The translations under genes were made by a program, and so were the position numbers. Shown here in pieces: positions 5,579 to 33,757 of a DNA stretch of 36,776 bases. Source of the DNA: an uncultured Lachnospiraceae bacterium (GTDB lineage: Bacteria; Bacillota; Clostridia; Lachnospirales; Lachnospiraceae); contig CANQYP010000005.1 of NCBI GenBank assembly GCA_947628045.1, positions 1 to 36,776 on the forward strand, in the 5' to 3' direction. A model generated the notes under the pieces. The model was not told where the DNA came from and made no database searches. It saw only the letters and a list, made by a program, of their open reading frames with translations. Positions within the stretch are counted from its first letter, which is position 1, and each line of letters starts with the position of its first letter.

Positions 5579-5825
5579 GTTCAGTCATGCCGACGACGGC
5601 CTGATCCGTATGGTTCGTCGCACCCTGCGCATGGCTTTTTTATTGTGAAAGCCCGGCCTCCATGCATAGTCGGACGACAAGTTCACTTGTCGGACTGGCT
5701 CTGCATGAGAGACGCTGACCCGTATGAGCAAAAAAGCAGCGTGAGCAGAGCGAACGATGTAATTTGCAAATAACGGGTAGGATTGCGGGAGCACATAGTG
5801 CGGAGCAATCCGTAGGGCTCTCATA
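5579..5825 (+). promoter_or_regulatory. structured pyrG leader / intergenic element (uncharacterised)
   Basis: Hairpins CGACAAG-ttca-CTTGTCG (5675-5692) and GGATTGC..GCACataGTGC..GCAATCC (5780-5811); TCATGC/GCATGA closing stem (5585-5590/5703-5708). Confidence 0.45.
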
Positions 5826-13666: not shown

Positions 13667-14845
13667 CTAAACGCGAACCGTCCGAATGATCCCGCTCTCG
13701 CGGATGCTCTCCACTGCCTCCCGCAGTTTCTCCGGCGGCAGCACCAGCGCCAGCCGCACATAGCCCTCCCCGAGGCTGCCGAAACTCGTGCCCGGCACGC
13801 AGATCACGCCGGACTTCTCCATCAGCTCCAGGCAGAATTTCTCGGAGTTCGTATAGCCCTCCGGCAGCGGAGCCCACACAAACATCGTGCCCTCGCTGTC
13901 CGGCACATTCCAGCCGATCTCGCGCAGACCTCCGCACAGCGCCCGGTTGCGCTCCTCGTACTTCGCGCACTGCTCGATCACACAGTCAAACGGTCCGGTC
14001 AGCGCCGCGATCGCGCCGTACTGCACCGGCAGGAAGGTCCCGTAGTCGAACTGCGTCCGCATCGCCTTGAATTTCTGAATGATCTGGGCGTTCCCGATCG
14101 CGAAGGACGCCCGCGCGCCGGTGTAGTTGAACGTCTTGGAGAGGGAATAGAACTCGATCCCCACGTCCTTCGCGCCCTCATAGTTCAGGAATGAGCCGCC
14201 GCGTTTCCCGCCGAACACGAGATCCGCGTACGCGTTGTCGTGCAGAAGGACAATGTCATATTTTTTCGCGAACGCGATCAGCTCCTCGTAAAAGTGATCC
14301 GGCGCAAGCTTGCACACCGGGTTGCCCGGATAGCTGAACACCATCAGTTTCGCGTCGCGCGCGACGTCCTCCGGGATCGCGCCGAGATCCGGCAGATACC
14401 CGTTCTCGGCGAGCAGCGGATACTCCCAGACCTCCGCGTCGCACAGCTGCGGTCCGATGCTGAAGATCGGATAACCCGGATTCGGCACCAGCACCAGATC
14501 GCCGGGATTGCACAGCGCCCACGCGATGTGCGTCATGCCCTCCTGCGAGCCGTACAGCGCCATGATCTCATCCCGCGCAAGCTCCAGTCCGAACCGTCTC
14601 GCGAAGAATCCCTGCGCCGCCTCCAAGAGCTCCGGCAGCTCCACCAGCGCGTACTTGTAATTCTCCGGTTTCTTCGCCGCCTCGCTGACCGCGTCTATGA
14701 TGTGCTGCGGGGGTCGGAAATCCGGCGTCCCCACCGAGAGGTTGTAGATCTTCTTCCCCTGCCGCTCCAGCTCGTTCTTCTTCTCGTTCAGCACCGCGAA
14801 GATGCCTGTCTCGATCTGCATTGCCTTGTCTGAAAACTGTCTCAT
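13667..14845 (-). CDS. aminotransferase (class I/II, LL-DAP-aminotransferase-like) from an internal start inside the larger ORF
   Basis: GGAGAAGGAGAATCAGACGATATGAGACAG: strong SD and ATG at 14845; complete fold with SLSKTFNYTGARASFAIG lysine site. Confidence 0.7.
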   Translation of the reverse strand: MRQFSDKAMQIETGIFAVLNEKKNELERQGKKIYNLSVGTPDFRPPQHIIDAVSEAAKKPENYKYALVELPELLEAAQGFFARRFGLELARDEIMALYGSQEGMTHIAWALCNPGDLVLVPNPGYPIFSIGPQLCDAEVWEYPLLAENGYLPDLGAIPEDVARDAKLMVFSYPGNPVCKLAPDHFYEELIAFAKKYDIVLLHDNAYADLVFGGKRGGSFLNYEGAKDVGIEFYSLSKTFNYTGARASFAIGNAQIIQKFKAMRTQFDYGTFLPVQYGAIAALTGPFDCVIEQCAKYEERNRALCGGLREIGWNVPDSEGTMFVWAPLPEGYTNSEKFCLELMEKSGVICVPGTSFGSLGEGYVRLALVLPPEKLREAVESIRESGIIRTVRV

Positions 14846-17785
14846 ATCGTCTGATTCTCCTTCTCCTGATCGACCCGCAAAGCGGCTCTTTCGTTTTTCC
14901 AGCACTCCGGAGGCCATGTAGAGCGCCGCGCACAGCAGCGTGAGGAACGTGCCGGGCCACAGCCCCCTCGGCGTGTATTTCATTCGTATCTCATGCGTTC
15001 CCGCCGTAAGGTGGATCCCCGTCAGCGTCTGTCCGACGGAGAACGGCTCCATCTCCTCGCCGTCCGCCGTGATGCGCCAGCCCGCATCATAAGGCACCGT
15101 CAGGAGCAGCGTCCCGTCCTCTTTCGCGTCCACCCTTCCGCTGACACGGTTGCCGTCCACGACCACGTCGGTCATCTGGCTCTCGGCAAGCCGGTCATGC
15201 ACCTGATCGTAGGCGTCGTTCGCGCAGGTATAGACCTGTGCCTGTACCGTCGACTGCCCGTCCTTGAGCCTTACCGTAAAGTCCGCCATGTCGTTTCCGT
15301 CCGCCGCGTTGATCACATACAGATGATCGGTGTAATCATCAAAGGATTTCGTGTATTCCGGCGTGTTCAGGCTGATGTTCGCCACGCGCGTGTCGATGCA
15401 GAGGTACACCTGCTTGTTCTCCGGGATCTTGATCCCGTAATTCCTCCCGTCCTCCATATCGATGTAGCGGTCCAGCACGTAGATCGGTTCCAGCCCCGTC
15501 GCGAGCTCCACGAAACTGTTCTGCACCTGCAGCGGCTCCCCCGCCTCGGTATCCCAGTTCGCGACGTCGTCGCGCACCATGAACCCGAGCGAAAGCGCCC
15601 CGTCGTTCTTGTAAAGCGCCAGCTCCCCGTCCTCCGCGACGCGCTCAAACTGATACATTGTACGCGCGACCTTCGACGGAGATGCCAGATAGCGAATGCC
15701 GAACACGTCGTTCATCAATTTCGTCACGCCGAGGTAGCCGTTCTTGTTCGTGCGCGCCTCAATGCCGAGGCTGTCGCAGAAATTGACGACCGACTCCTGC
15801 ATCGTGGAATTGAACATGACCATCGCGTTTCCGCCGGCAAACATCGTCACGTTCCGCATCCGCTGACGGTCGACCTCGCTGCGGAAAAACGTGTCGTCGC
15901 CCTGCTGCGCCATCATCGTCTGAAACGATTTCTGATCGTCGATATAGATGCTCCTCGTCACGCCGTCGTTGCAGATGATGCCGTAGACCGCGTTCGCCGA
16001 CGCCTCGGCAAGCGCCACCGCCGAGACGAGCGCGCAGAAGGTCTTAAACCGCACGCGTCTCGCCAGTCGCCCGAAGAGAAACAGGGCAAAATACAGCGTG
16101 AGCAGCCCGAAGGAGACGAGGTATACATAATCCTTGATCTCCCCGCTGCGCTGCGTGTAGTCGACCGCCACGAACCCCGCCGTCGCCACCCACGCAAAGA
16201 CCAGCGCCGGAACGCGGATGCTGCGGATATGTCCGAGCGCATCGTACGCCATCACGAGCAGAACCGCGATATACAGGAACGCGAAACGGTTCGGCAGCCC
16301 GTTCTGGACGTGGAACCCGTGCCAGATGTAATTCAACATATTGAAGGAAAAGCTCAGCAGCAGCAGCGCGCCAAGCCCGAAGTGCGCGAGGCGCTCCCGC
16401 AGGCGCAGTTTGCCGTCAAACAGATAGACCACCGCGAGCAGCACGGCGGACACTCCGCAGTAGACGTTGAGCCCGACCTGCGAGCTGGAGATATTGACCG
16501 GCGTCATGAGCGCCATATGGTTCTCCAGCAGCCCCCACAGACTCTCGTAAAACTTCACCATCGTCGGGAAACTGTTGCTCTGCATGGATTCGGACGAGCT
16601 CAGTCCCAGGTATGCCGGGAGCAGCACAAGCGCCGCCATTCCGCCCGCCAGCAGCGCGTACCAGGCAAAGACGAGGCTGCTGCGGAACACTCGTTTCGCG
16701 GTGATCCTGCGGCTCGCGATCCAGCGCACCAGAAAATACAGGCAGGAAAAAATGCAGAGCATAAAGCCGATGTAATAATTGCACCACAGCCCGTAAAACA
16801 GCGACAGCCCGAAGAGCCTGCCGCTGCCGCCCTTCACGATCCGCTCGATCCCCAGCATGATCAGCGGCAGCATCGCGATGCTGTCGAGCCACATGAGATT
16901 GAAATAGTAACCGATCATGAAATTGCTCAGCGCGAACATCATGCCGAACACCGCCGGCAGATAACGCCGCTCGGGGTCCCGTCGGTGCAGGTACCAGGAA
17001 AAGCAGCCGCCGCACAGCCCGATCTTCAGCAGGATCATCAGATCCATGAAATCGCAGACGTTCTCCCGCGGGATAAACGCCATCAGGAAATTCAGCGGGC
17101 TTGCCATATAGTAGGCGTAGGTCGACCAGAAATTGTACCCGAGCCCGCCCGAGAACGAGTAGAGCAGGGACTGGCTGTTCTGCAGCTTTCCGTGGAAATC
17201 CGTGTAGAACGGCAGATACTGGTGCAGAGAGTCGATGATCAGGACGGTATTGTCCCCGAACGGCCAGACGCGCAGCACAGCAAAGCCAACCGCCGCCACG
17301 AGCGCGGACAGGGCAAATCCCGCGAAGAAAAACCGCCGCGCGCGGCTTTTCTTCCTCTTCGCCTCCTCCGACTGCGCTCCTTCGGATGATTCGTCCTTAA
17401 ACACGACAAAGCGGCTGATCAGGTAGTTCAGCACCATGATCACGACCTGGATCACCAGTTTCGCAATCATGTCGTCCATGCCCCAGACGCTGTTGAGCAA
17501 TACGACGCCGAACACCTCCACGACCATCGTCCCCAGCCGCATCCCGATGAAACTGCACGCCTCTTTCAAAAGCGCCCACAGCGAATCCGTCCGGTGCTCA
17601 AACACAAAAAGCTTGTTCACCACATACGCGAACAGGATCGCCAGCAGGACCGCCGCCGTGTTCGCCGCCGTGACATTCAGCCCTGCCGCATTTCGCAAAA
17701 GCCAGGTGCAAAGCAGATTGAACCCGGTCGTGCAGAAACCGAAAAATATGTATCGGACGCCCTGATTTTGTACTAATTTCTTCAT
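13667..17785 (-). CDS. three-part ORF: GtrA-like domain + YfhO-like membrane glycosyltransferase + PLP aminotransferase
   Basis: GtrA-like N-terminus (YIFFGFCTTGFNLLCTWLLR); YfhO-like middle (IDSLHQYLPFYTDFHGKLQ..FSGGLGYNFWSTYAYYMASPLN); class I/II aminotransferase C-terminus. Confidence 0.85.
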   Translation of the reverse strand: MKKLVQNQGVRYIFFGFCTTGFNLLCTWLLRNAAGLNVTAANTAAVLLAILFAYVVNKLFVFEHRTDSLWALLKEACSFIGMRLGTMVVEVFGVVLLNSVWGMDDMIAKLVIQVVIMVLNYLISRFVVFKDESSEGAQSEEAKRKKSRARRFFFAGFALSALVAAVGFAVLRVWPFGDNTVLIIDSLHQYLPFYTDFHGKLQNSQSLLYSFSGGLGYNFWSTYAYYMASPLNFLMAFIPRENVCDFMDLMILLKIGLCGGCFSWYLHRRDPERRYLPAVFGMMFALSNFMIGYYFNLMWLDSIAMLPLIMLGIERIVKGGSGRLFGLSLFYGLWCNYYIGFMLCIFSCLYFLVRWIASRRITAKRVFRSSLVFAWYALLAGGMAALVLLPAYLGLSSSESMQSNSFPTMVKFYESLWGLLENHMALMTPVNISSSQVGLNVYCGVSAVLLAVVYLFDGKLRLRERLAHFGLGALLLLSFSFNMLNYIWHGFHVQNGLPNRFAFLYIAVLLVMAYDALGHIRSIRVPALVFAWVATAGFVAVDYTQRSGEIKDYVYLVSFGLLTLYFALFLFGRLARRVRFKTFCALVSAVALAEASANAVYGIICNDGVTRSIYIDDQKSFQTMMAQQGDDTFFRSEVDRQRMRNVTMFAGGNAMVMFNSTMQESVVNFCDSLGIEARTNKNGYLGVTKLMNDVFGIRYLASPSKVARTMYQFERVAEDGELALYKNDGALSLGFMVRDDVANWDTEAGEPLQVQNSFVELATGLEPIYVLDRYIDMEDGRNYGIKIPENKQVYLCIDTRVANISLNTPEYTKSFDDYTDHLYVINAADGNDMADFTVRLKDGQSTVQAQVYTCANDAYDQVHDRLAESQMTDVVVDGNRVSGRVDAKEDGTLLLTVPYDAGWRITADGEEMEPFSVGQTLTGIHLTAGTHEIRMKYTPRGLWPGTFLTLLCAALYMASGVLEKRKSRFAGRSGEGESDDMRQFSDKAMQIETGIFAVLNEKKNELERQGKKIYNLSVGTPDFRPPQHIIDAVSEAAKKPENYKYALVELPELLEAAQGFFARRFGLELARDEIMALYGSQEGMTHIAWALCNPGDLVLVPNPGYPIFSIGPQLCDAEVWEYPLLAENGYLPDLGAIPEDVARDAKLMVFSYPGNPVCKLAPDHFYEELIAFAKKYDIVLLHDNAYADLVFGGKRGGSFLNYEGAKDVGIEFYSLSKTFNYTGARASFAIGNAQIIQKFKAMRTQFDYGTFLPVQYGAIAALTGPFDCVIEQCAKYEERNRALCGGLREIGWNVPDSEGTMFVWAPLPEGYTNSEKFCLELMEKSGVICVPGTSFGSLGEGYVRLALVLPPEKLREAVESIRESGIIRTVRV

Positions 17786-30886: not shown

Positions 30887-30894
30887 CACAGACA

Positions 30895-30940
30895 GCGCCA
30901 AAACGCAAATGGGGCAGGGTCAAAAACGACCCTGCCCCGC
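30895..30940. repeat. hairpin repeat copy A
   Basis: gcgccaaaacgcaaatGGGGCAGGGTCaaaaacGACCCTGCCCCgc; 11-bp perfect stem. Confidence 0.85.
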
Positions 30941-30943
30941 AGC

Positions 30944-31423
30944 TTATCCCTTTTCTCTCAACTTCCGCAGCAATTCCACGCCTCTTTGAATTGTTTCCTC
31001 TTCCCCCAGTCCCCTCGCCTCAATGATCCGTTCCACCGCCTGAGCCGGGTCAAGCGAATGATACGGATAATATAGGTTTTTAAGCTCCTCCGGCTTGATG
31101 ATCTTATACAGTCTCTTGCTGCTGATCTCCCGCATATAACACCAATATCGGTAAATGTACCCCATCCAGTACAACTCTTCCGTATCGTATTTTGTCTTCC
31201 CGTAATCGGAATCCCCATACTCTTCCGTTATCTCCTGAATCAGATTATCCGGAGACGATGCCTCGAGCAAAAAACCTTCCCCATCCATTCTTCTGGCTGC
31301 ATCGGAATACATAAAGCGTCGCAGAAAAACCGGAGAACTGCACTCCGCCTGTTCTCTGGAAACAGAAAATAAATTCGCCTGATACCTGCACAACTTCAAG
31401 CCGTATTCATCTATCTCTCTCAT
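30944..31423 (-). CDS. hypothetical protein, putative partner of the DUF3990-like gene
   Basis: ATGA overlap with upstream gene; ELYWMGYIYRYWCYMREISSKRLYKIIKPEELKNLYYPYHSLDPAQAVERIIEA; family unassigned. Confidence 0.7.
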   Translation of the reverse strand: MREIDEYGLKLCRYQANLFSVSREQAECSSPVFLRRFMYSDAARRMDGEGFLLEASSPDNLIQEITEEYGDSDYGKTKYDTEELYWMGYIYRYWCYMREISSKRLYKIIKPEELKNLYYPYHSLDPAQAVERIIEARGLGEEETIQRGVELLRKLREKG

Positions 31424-32280
31424 CTCACGATCTCCTCAATGTACCGCCCCTGTCCTCGGTACTGCTTTCTTGCAATCTTTACTTTATCCAGACTGATATT
31501 GACAGACTCCCTGCCGGAGCGCAGATAATATTCCTTCTCTTCGGAGCAGAGATAACAATGCTCCAAGATCTGTATCTGCCCCAAAGCCTTCTCCGTCAGG
31601 AAAACATATTGATTTCCCAGATTTGTCGCAGATAAACAGTGTTTGCACTGCACGTCTGTAATCTCTCCCTCCACAAAACTATCAATAATCTCAAACATCC
31701 TGTTGTCCGCAATCGGCGCTATGATATAATCTATGCCCTTAATACCAGCAATTAATTCCGAGATAACAGCGGAATTTTCAAATTCCTTTAAGCGTCCCCG
31801 AAAATATGCAATACTCAGCATCCAATCCCGGTCTACTGTAAATCTCTTTTCGCGCAATCCCGCAGGATCAAAATCGATCATATACAGGGAAGACTTCGGA
31901 AAGCCTAAAACGAACATCACCGATTGCTCCAGATTCTCACCGCAATAAAATCCCTGTCCGAAATCATTATTTTTCCTCGATTTCGTTATGTCAAGTTTCC
32001 CGTCTATCACCGTTTTCGCGCCATGAAACAAAACGCGATGAGATCCATTGGAATACTCTTCCTTATACAATTGTTCCTTTATTTTATTTAATCGAATTCC
32101 CCTTCTGAAAGCCATGCCGTAGAAAGCAGACAGATTGATCTGGCGTATCTTACTCTCATCGAGTCTCCAGTTGTTCAGTGTCATTCTGGACACTCCTATC
32201 TCATTCGCAACCTCACTGCTTGTCATTTTCAATAATTCTTTTACTATCTCTATATCATTCACAATTCTGTAATCCGCCAT
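31420..32280 (-). CDS. N-terminal HTH + DUF3990-like (ADP-ribosyltransferase-fold) protein
   Basis: HTH: SSEVANEIGVSRMTLNNWRLDESKIRQI; DUF3990-like: HRVLFHGAKTVIDGKLDITKSRKNNDFGQGFYCGE ... QYVFLTEKAL. Confidence 0.8.
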   Translation of the reverse strand: MADYRIVNDIEIVKELLKMTSSEVANEIGVSRMTLNNWRLDESKIRQINLSAFYGMAFRRGIRLNKIKEQLYKEEYSNGSHRVLFHGAKTVIDGKLDITKSRKNNDFGQGFYCGENLEQSVMFVLGFPKSSLYMIDFDPAGLREKRFTVDRDWMLSIAYFRGRLKEFENSAVISELIAGIKGIDYIIAPIADNRMFEIIDSFVEGEITDVQCKHCLSATNLGNQYVFLTEKALGQIQILEHCYLCSEEKEYYLRSGRESVNISLDKVKIARKQYRGQGRYIEEIVR

Positions 32281-32295
32281 TCATGCCCTCGCTCT

Positions 32296-32375
32296 CAAAC
32301 TTATTTGTAAAGTATTATACTGCATTCTTTCCCATTCGTCAAACTTATTTATAAAATACTTTACATATAAGTTTA
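32296..32375 (-). promoter_or_regulatory. promoter with three operator-like repeats for the DUF3990-like operon
   Basis: Minus strand TTGACG-17-TATAAT (plus 32337-32342 and 32314-32319); CAAACTTATTTGTAAAGTA-like copies at 32296, 32340 and inverted at 32356-32375. Confidence 0.75.
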
Positions 32376-32383
32376 TCAAGACC

Positions 32384-32496
32384 GATGCCGAAACGCAAAC
32401 GGGGCAGGGTCAAAAATCGACCCTGCCCCGCTCAGTCATCTAATTTTGATGTTTTTGCGGCTTTCTCCGCCGCCTATCTCTTTTGCACCTTTCCAG
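32384..32496. repeat. hairpin repeat copy B
   Basis: ccgaaacgcaaacGGGGCAGGGTCaaaaatcGACCCTGCCCCgctcag + tcatctaattttgatg...ctatctcttttgcacctttccag. Confidence 0.85.
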
Positions 32497-33513: not shown

Positions 33514-33641
33514 ATATTATCCTCCACTCTGGGCAGAGGAATTCTATGCATCCATTATAGAACAGTGGGGCAAAAAATACAAGCAATAAAATGTTTCATG
33601 GACCGGGAACTCAAATCGTTCAAGCTTGCGTGCAGAAATCA

Positions 33642-33757
33642 GCGCCGAAACGCAAACGGGGCAGGGTCAAAAAACACCCCTGCCCTGCTCAACCATCTAA
33701 TTTTGTTGCTTTTGCAACACTTTTCGCAACTTATCTCTTTTGCGCCTCCCCAGCTCT
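33642..33757. repeat. hairpin repeat copy C
   Basis: gcgccgaaacgcaaacgGGGCAGGGtcaaaaaacacCCCTGCCCtgctcaaccatctaattttg...cttatctcttttgcgcctccccag. Confidence 0.85.

What the first reader, a model, noticed from the sequence alone, without database searches (positions are those of the whole stretch)
30944..32375. HTH-DUF3990 ART-like protein plus partner as a candidate toxin-antitoxin or NAD-targeting module
Seen: two minus-strand genes overlap by ATGA, are more AT-rich than their surroundings, and are bounded by repeat copies A and B. The first encodes an N-terminal HTH joined to a DUF3990-like domain; the second encodes a small aromatic-rich protein of unknown family. Known: DUF3990 has been placed in the ADP-ribosyltransferase superfamily, and ART toxins occur in TA and phage-defence loci (e.g. 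RES-Xre, DarTG). Inference: here the DNA-binding domain is on the ART-like chain, not on a separate antitoxin, and the 159-aa partner could be the neutraliser or a modified substrate.
Basis: partly seen in the sequence, partly recalled or inferred. Interest (0 to 1): 0.7.

Follow-up and report, generated by a model that had tools for sequence, protein, structure and literature searches.

The report
Self-repressing ADP-ribosyltransferase toxin-antitoxin-like pair
Two overlapping gut-bacterial genes form a mobile two-gene module: an enzyme of the ADP-ribosyltransferase family that carries its own DNA-reading domain and very probably switches off its own promoter, and a helical partner that is always beside it and probably keeps it harmless, which is the reverse of the usual arrangement where the antidote does the DNA reading.

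Summary
P0001 (31420-32280, minus) is an Xre-type HTH plus a DUF3990 ADP-ribosyltransferase (ART) domain with an H-Y-Q triad, invariant in 73 of 73 relatives. P0002 (30944-31423, minus) is an all-helical partner with no Pfam or NCBIfam family. The genes overlap (ATGA), are AT-rich, and lie between two hairpin repeats. The pair is real: every one of about 56 chromosomal A genes checked has B next to it, whereas intact B often survives a destroyed A (10 of 95). This is the pattern of a toxin (A) with a neutraliser (B), but no toxicity was tested. The new result is regulatory. A 31-32 bp palindrome AACTT-N22-AAGTT lies on the promoter of most copies. Its inner half covaries with A's recognition helix more than with any other stretch of A or B, and in this genome its half-site occurs only here. 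So the ART chain itself is very probably the autorepressor. In sister modules the HTH sits on B instead, so the DNA-binding domain has changed sides. The nearest described system is PADLOC's uncharacterised candidate PDC-M42; this is an HTH-on-ART variant. Neighbourhoods are not enriched in defence genes, so a phage-defence role is unproven.

The parts
31420..32280 (-). gene A: Xre-type HTH (about residues 6-59) + DUF3990 ADP-ribosyltransferase-like domain (84-237) + C-terminal helical tail (246-285); putative toxin and autorepressor
30944..31423 (-). gene B: 159-aa all-helical partner (conserved WxGYxYRY and YHxxD motifs); putative neutraliser
31420..31423 (-). ATGA overlap of A stop and B start (translational coupling); the same spacing in 47 of 73 relatives
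32341..32374 (-). operator O1, 34-bp palindrome AAACTTATATGTAAAGTATTTTATAAATAAGTTT, touching the -35 element
32297..32330 (-). operator O2, conserved right half ACTTTACAAATAAGTTT with degenerate left half, overlapping the -10 element; 44 bp from O1
32314..32342 (-). sigma-70-type promoter TTGACG-17-TATAAT (11 of 12 matches)
30911..30938 (.). hairpin repeat copy 1, just downstream of B; terminator-like on the minus strand
32401..32429 (.). hairpin repeat copy 2, just upstream of the promoter; also present upstream of the homologous module of a sister species at a different site
33640..33753 (.). third, degenerate copy of the repeat beyond the neighbouring PD-(D/E)XK (PF12784) gene; brackets that gene, not the pair

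Best explanation
A horizontally moving two-gene toxin-antitoxin-like module. A is a DUF3990 ART of the H-Y-[EDQ] type (H86, Y112, Q224) that probably spends NAD+, either by ADP-ribosylating a macromolecule or by destroying NAD+. B is a helical partner that probably binds A and keeps it inactive. A's own Xre-type HTH binds a 32-bp palindrome over the promoter and represses the operon, so the ART chain, not the neutraliser, is the repressor. If B is lost or titrated, A becomes active. Shown here: pairing, fold class, invariant active-site residues, operator, operator-helix covariation, HTH on B in sister modules, one-sided decay. Inferred: NAD use, toxicity, neutralisation by binding, and whether repression needs the A-B complex.
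For: Pairing: about 56 chromosomal A genes with sequence downstream all have B adjacent; 73 of 80 B genes have intact A immediately upstream, 47 with the ATGA overlap; A and B divergences correlate at 0.91. ART: Pfam DUF3990 E 2.5e-26; DUF3990 is in the Pfam ART clan (PMC7955679); AlphaFold2 pLDDT 91.7, pTM 0.86; Foldseek to viral ART-PolyVal proteins E 3.4e-5 and a diphtheria-toxin homologue E 6.8e-3; H86, Y112, Q224 invariant in 73/73. Decay: ART destroyed or absent beside intact B in 10 of 95 B-anchored loci, against 0 A without B (Fisher p about 0.015 with 50 A). Autorepression: AACTT-N18-24-AAGTT in 54 of 73 upstream regions, 0.8% in shuffles; among 142 windows of A and B the recognition helix 31-41 is the best correlate of the operator's inner half after removing overall divergence, best single residue R32; half-site only at this promoter in the genome. 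Domain swap: sister partners are B-like domain + C-terminal HTH_3 with an HTH-less DUF3990 (B homology hhalign 99.3%, E 2.9e-20).
Against: No toxicity, NAD or binding data. Two rumen phage contigs carry an intact A-like gene with no recognisable B (L166, L167), so A alone is tolerated at least there. The decay asymmetry is modest in number and partly depends on which gene was used as the query. B's fold matches nothing solved, and no A-B interface was modelled. The covariation signal is a partial correlation of about 0.3 and could include a contribution from B.
Confidence: 0.58

Rival explanations
1. A dedicated anti-phage (abortive infection) system: B is the sensor or lock, a phage product releases A, and A spends NAD+ or modifies phage or host molecules.
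For: PADLOC lists the HTH-less sister family as phage-defence candidate PDC-M42, and sister proteins match it strongly (A 5e-38, B 9e-15). Patchy, mobile distribution across gut phyla and two different sites in two sister species.
Against: Genes near the module are no richer in PADLOC families than random genes from genomes of the same family (against the control). P0001 and P0002 match the PDC-M42 models only weakly (7e-5 and 8e-7). No trigger is known.
Confidence: 0.25
2. Roles reversed: A, which carries the HTH, is the antitoxin and repressor, and B is the toxin.
For: In type II systems the DNA-binding domain is usually on the antitoxin (PMC4803016).
Against: A keeps an invariant ART active-site triad in 73/73 copies. 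Intact B survives loss of A repeatedly, which a lone toxin should not. In sister modules the HTH is on B.
Confidence: 0.08
3. A is a non-toxic NAD-sensing autoregulator, the ART domain being a ligand sensor, and B a co-regulator.
For: The HTH-operator link is the best-supported function.
Against: The operator half-site occurs only at the module's own promoter in this genome, so there is no regulon to control. Catalytic residues, not just a binding shell, are invariant. One-sided decay of A.
Confidence: 0.1
4. A selfish addiction module carried by hairpin-bracketed mobile DNA, with no host benefit.
For: The module is bracketed by the same hairpin family at two unrelated sites in two sister species; eight other genus members tested have no such hairpin. 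Three close relatives lack the insertion beside the same kinase gene.
Against: No transposase or integrase is tied to the module; the adjacent PF12784 gene has its own bracketing repeat. This is not exclusive of the best explanation.
Confidence: 0.2

Closest known systems
PADLOC candidate PDC-M42 (A = DUF3990, B = 138-aa model)
   Same: Same two protein families in the same order. Sister proteins from the same bacterial family match at 5e-38 and 9e-15; P0002 matches PDC-M42B at 8e-7. No paper naming it was found.
   Different: The better-matching A model (215 aa) has no N-terminal HTH. The window type has the HTH on A and a 32-bp operator with AACTT outer arms. PDC-M42 has no published mechanism in the library searched.
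DUF3791-DUF3990-DUF3791 modules (PADLOC PDC-M13)
   Same: DUF3990 ART beside small helical partners; two examples in the same genome. B's two halves weakly resemble the two DUF3791 proteins (single-comparison p about 1e-4 and 4e-4).
   Different: Three genes, no HTH, partners 70-110 aa.
RES-Xre / NatR-NatT type II toxin-antitoxin
   Same: ART-fold toxin, Xre-type HTH, several palindromic operators over the promoter (PMC12204516).
   Different: There the HTH is on the antitoxin and the ART is of the RES family; here the HTH is on the ART chain and the partner lacks it.
DarTG
   Same: ART toxin with an adjacent neutraliser (PMC9503650).
   Different: No DarT family match to A and no macrodomain in B. 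B is all-helical and has no enzyme-like fold match, so removal of ADP-ribose by B is unlikely.

Membership tests
DUF3990 / ART superfamily, H-Y-[EDQ] clade | match to PF13151 above its cut-off | tested here: met
   92.6 bits against a cut-off of 32.2
DUF3990 / ART superfamily, H-Y-[EDQ] clade | conserved H, Y and E/D/Q active-site residues | tested here: met
   H86, Y112, Q224 invariant in 73/73. The three-clade scheme is from PMC9503650; Q224 as third residue is inferred from its position in a strand of the model.
DUF3990 / ART superfamily, H-Y-[EDQ] clade | ART fold | tested here: met
   Confident model; viral ART-PolyVal matches E 3.4e-5; PDB match only E 6.8e-3
DUF3990 / ART superfamily, H-Y-[EDQ] clade | NAD+ binding and turnover | not testable with these tools
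   needs an assay
type II toxin-antitoxin system | two small co-directional, coupled genes always found together | tested here: met
type II toxin-antitoxin system | operon autoregulated through palindromes at its promoter | tested here: met
   comparative evidence only: 54/73 palindromes, recognition-helix covariation, half-site unique to the locus
type II toxin-antitoxin system | DNA-binding domain on the antitoxin | tested here: not met
   HTH is on the ART chain A; B has none. It is met in the sister modules.
type II toxin-antitoxin system | A toxic alone, B neutralises by binding | not testable with these tools
   indirect support from one-sided decay
PADLOC PDC-M42 | both protein models matched | tested here: inconclusive
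   A 7e-5, B 8e-7; PADLOC's own cut-offs were not available
anti-phage defence system | location among defence genes | tested here: not met
   no enrichment among 140 neighbours against 137 control genes; small sample, simple gene calling
anti-phage defence system | protection against phage | not testable with these tools
   needs phage challenge
DarTG | DarT-family ART plus macrodomain partner | tested here: not met
   no DarT or macrodomain match
RES-Xre | RES-family ART with Xre antitoxin | tested here: not met
   A is DUF3990; the HTH is on A; B has no Xre or toxin-binding-domain match

The most novel reading that the evidence does not exclude
A family of ART toxin-antitoxin modules in which the DNA-binding domain has moved between neutraliser and toxin, so that here the toxic enzyme is its own repressor. 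The operator has two layers: an inner half read by A's recognition helix, and invariant AACTT outer arms present only in the HTH-on-A type and read by some other conserved part of A or B. Promoter occupancy and enzyme activity could then be directly coupled.
Probability: 0.4. Interest if true: 0.72.

Novelty: new variant of a known kind. Interest (0 to 1): 0.6.

Why it matters
In the type II systems I know of, the antitoxin reads the operator, and models of regulation by toxin:antitoxin ratio rest on that. A clade where the toxin-like enzyme carries the reading domain, next to sister clades where the partner carries it, is a natural experiment for testing how such ratio control evolves. It also gives a concrete mechanism to test for DUF3990, a widespread ART family with, as far as the library searched shows, no characterised cellular member, and for PADLOC's orphan candidate PDC-M42.

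Tried and rejected
Defence-island context was tested and not found. An apparent 3-kb insertion splitting B with A intact (L214/L256, G447) turned out to be a run of N with duplicated sequence, an assembly gap, and was discarded. B has no match among solved structures by sequence or by fold. B as two fused DUF3791 domains was tested by hhalign: suggestive only. B was not found in viral contigs or plasmids. The hairpin was considered as a general dispersed repeat of the genome and rejected: exact copies lie only at this locus. No paper on DUF3990 function beyond clan membership and passing mentions in T6SS/Rhs papers was found, and none naming PDC-M42.

Full report
Observation. GC falls to 0.41-0.47 across them against about 0.54-0.60 in the flanks. 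A 40-nt repeat with a 12-bp-stem hairpin sits just downstream of B (30893-30932) and just upstream of A's promoter (32383-32422). A longer but degenerate repeat pair (32387-32496 and 33644-33753) brackets the neighbouring PF12784 gene.

What A is. A matches Pfam DUF3990 well above its cut-off, and DUF3990 belongs to the Pfam ART clan (PMC7955679). The AlphaFold2 model from 19 relatives is confident (pLDDT 91.7, pTM 0.86). Foldseek finds viral ART-PolyVal proteins (E 3.4e-5) and, weakly, a diphtheria-toxin homologue (E 6.8e-3). The N-terminal 59 residues superpose on Cro/C1-type repressors (P22 c2 at 1.1-1.2 A over 51 residues), and the family profile matches CylR2 and HipB. H86, Y112 and Q224 are invariant in 73 of 73 intact relatives. 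Q224 lies in a strand with the context NQYVF, which reads like the NEY of PARP enzymes (from memory, not tested), so the triad is H-Y-Q. Published surveys say the H-Y-[EDQ] clade contains both macromolecule modifiers and NADases (PMC9503650), so the chemistry cannot be chosen from sequence.

What B is. B is all-helical (pLDDT 89.5). It matches no solved fold and no Pfam or NCBIfam family. It matches PADLOC model PDC-M42B at 8e-7, and A matches PDC-M42A at 7e-5. HTH-less sister proteins from the same bacterial family match those models at 5e-38 and 9e-15, so the window pair is a divergent relative of that uncharacterised candidate. The two halves of B weakly resemble the two DUF3791 proteins that flank DUF3990 in three-gene modules (p about 1e-4 and 4e-4 in single hhalign comparisons). 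This is suggestive only.

The pair. Starting from B, 80 named genome loci were fetched. They are mainly Lachnospiraceae, with Erysipelotrichaceae, Eggerthellaceae, Collinsella, Anaerovibrio and others; some are MAGs with doubtful labels. In 73 of them A is intact and immediately upstream, 47 with the ATGA overlap. Starting from A in family, order, class and genus samples, every A with sequence available downstream had B next to it, about 56 in all. A and B divergences correlate at 0.91. Decay is one-sided. Ten of 95 intact B genes stand beside an A whose ART domain is deleted, truncated or absent (L005 in this very genome, L021, L023, L030, L104, L110, L134, L142, L154, L158), and no intact chromosomal A lacks B (Fisher p about 0.015 using 50 A). 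The sample is modest and the two searches are not perfectly comparable.

Counter-example. Two rumen phage contigs (L166, L167) carry an intact A-like gene with its own N-terminal domain and no recognisable B. In L166 it overlaps a 581-aa phage gene. These may be phage-borne ART effectors; they show that A-like proteins can exist without B.

The operator. Upstream of A in the window there is a near-perfect promoter (TTGACG-17-TATAAT, 32342-32314). A 34-bp palindrome touches the -35 (O1, 32341-32374), and a second site with one conserved half overlaps the -10 (O2, 32297-32330). Across relatives, AACTT-N18-24-AAGTT is present in 54 of 73 upstream regions against 0.8% of shuffled ones. The inner half varies by clade. 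Recognition helix SRxTxxNW goes with TGTAAA..TTTACA, VEQVTISRNE with TTTAAGTAATATGATATAAA, VERVRIARIE with GTATCATTTGATAC, and SPETxxRW with TATTGAC..GTCAATA. After removing overall A and B divergence, the 11-residue window that best tracks the operator among 142 windows of A and B is 31-41, the recognition helix, and the best single residue is R32 (helix with ART divergence removed, permutation p 0.0005). In the genome, the half-site with up to two mismatches occurs only at this promoter. I therefore take it as well supported, though not assayed, that A is an autorepressor.

Domain swap. In sister modules (L066-L071 and L073-L077) DUF3990 has no HTH, and its partner is a B-like domain followed by a C-terminal HTH_3 (B homology 99.3%, E 2.9e-20). 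Several of their promoters carry shorter palindromes of about 20-24 bp, and none has the AACTT arms. Other relatives (L082-L084) have the HTH on neither protein. One genome (L218, G338) carries both architectures side by side. So the DNA-reading domain is on the partner in one branch and on the ART in the other. Which state is ancestral was not tested.

Mobility. Among 47 genomes of the genus, A-like genes are found in 8. The nearest copy (90% identical, G314) lies at a different place, bracketed by two copies of the same hairpin family. Eight other genus members tested have no such hairpin. Close relatives (L258, L260, L261) share the kinase gene next to the window pair but not the insertion.

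Defence context. PADLOC families among 140 neighbours are no more frequent than among 137 random genes from genomes of the same family. The candidate-defence label of PDC-M42 is therefore the only link to phage defence.

Verdict. This is a real, conserved, mobile ART-partner module that most likely works as a toxin-antitoxin-like pair in which the toxic-looking enzyme is also the repressor. It is a new variant of a known kind. Toxicity, NAD chemistry, neutralisation and any phage phenotype are untested.

Noticed in passing
G000:C123 about 4.9-5.9 kb (L005): Second copy of the pair in the same genome: B' intact (142 aa), A' missing its HTH and the catalytic His region.
   Followed up: yes
L001 (G000:C33), about 1-1460: A DUF3990 gene (PDC-M10-like) with an unknown 154-aa partner lies directly after what looks like a CRISPR array (regularly spaced repeats, seen as ORFs with repeated FESSVILYGSET).
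   Followed up: no
L002, L003 (G000:C100, C186): DUF3791-DUF3990-DUF3791 three-gene modules (PDC-M13-like); the C186 DUF3990 copy is truncated.
   Followed up: partly
L166:675-1556, L167 about 1395-2291: Rumen phage contigs carry an intact A-like ART with an N-terminal HTH-like region and no B; in L166 it overlaps a 581-aa phage gene. Candidate phage-delivered ART.
   Followed up: partly
window 30911-30938, 32401-32429, about 33658-33685; L279: Hairpin repeat found only at this locus in the genome; in sister genome G314 it brackets the same module elsewhere and also follows a PD-(D/E)XK (Rpn-like) gene.
   Followed up: partly
upstream of A in most HTH-on-A loci: Outer AACTT/AAGTT arms of the operator are shared across clades with different recognition helices, and absent from HTH-on-B sisters; what reads them is unexplained.
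   Followed up: partly
L218 (G338:C22): An HTH-on-B module lies directly upstream of an HTH-on-A module.
   Followed up: no
window 5647-5822: Clostridiales-1 sRNA (RF01699), E 3e-16, between ftsH-like and CTP synthase genes.
   Followed up: no
window 13667-17785: A 1372-aa ORF joins a GtrA/YfhO-like membrane protein to an aminotransferase-like C-terminal part; possibly a fusion or a missing stop.
   Followed up: no
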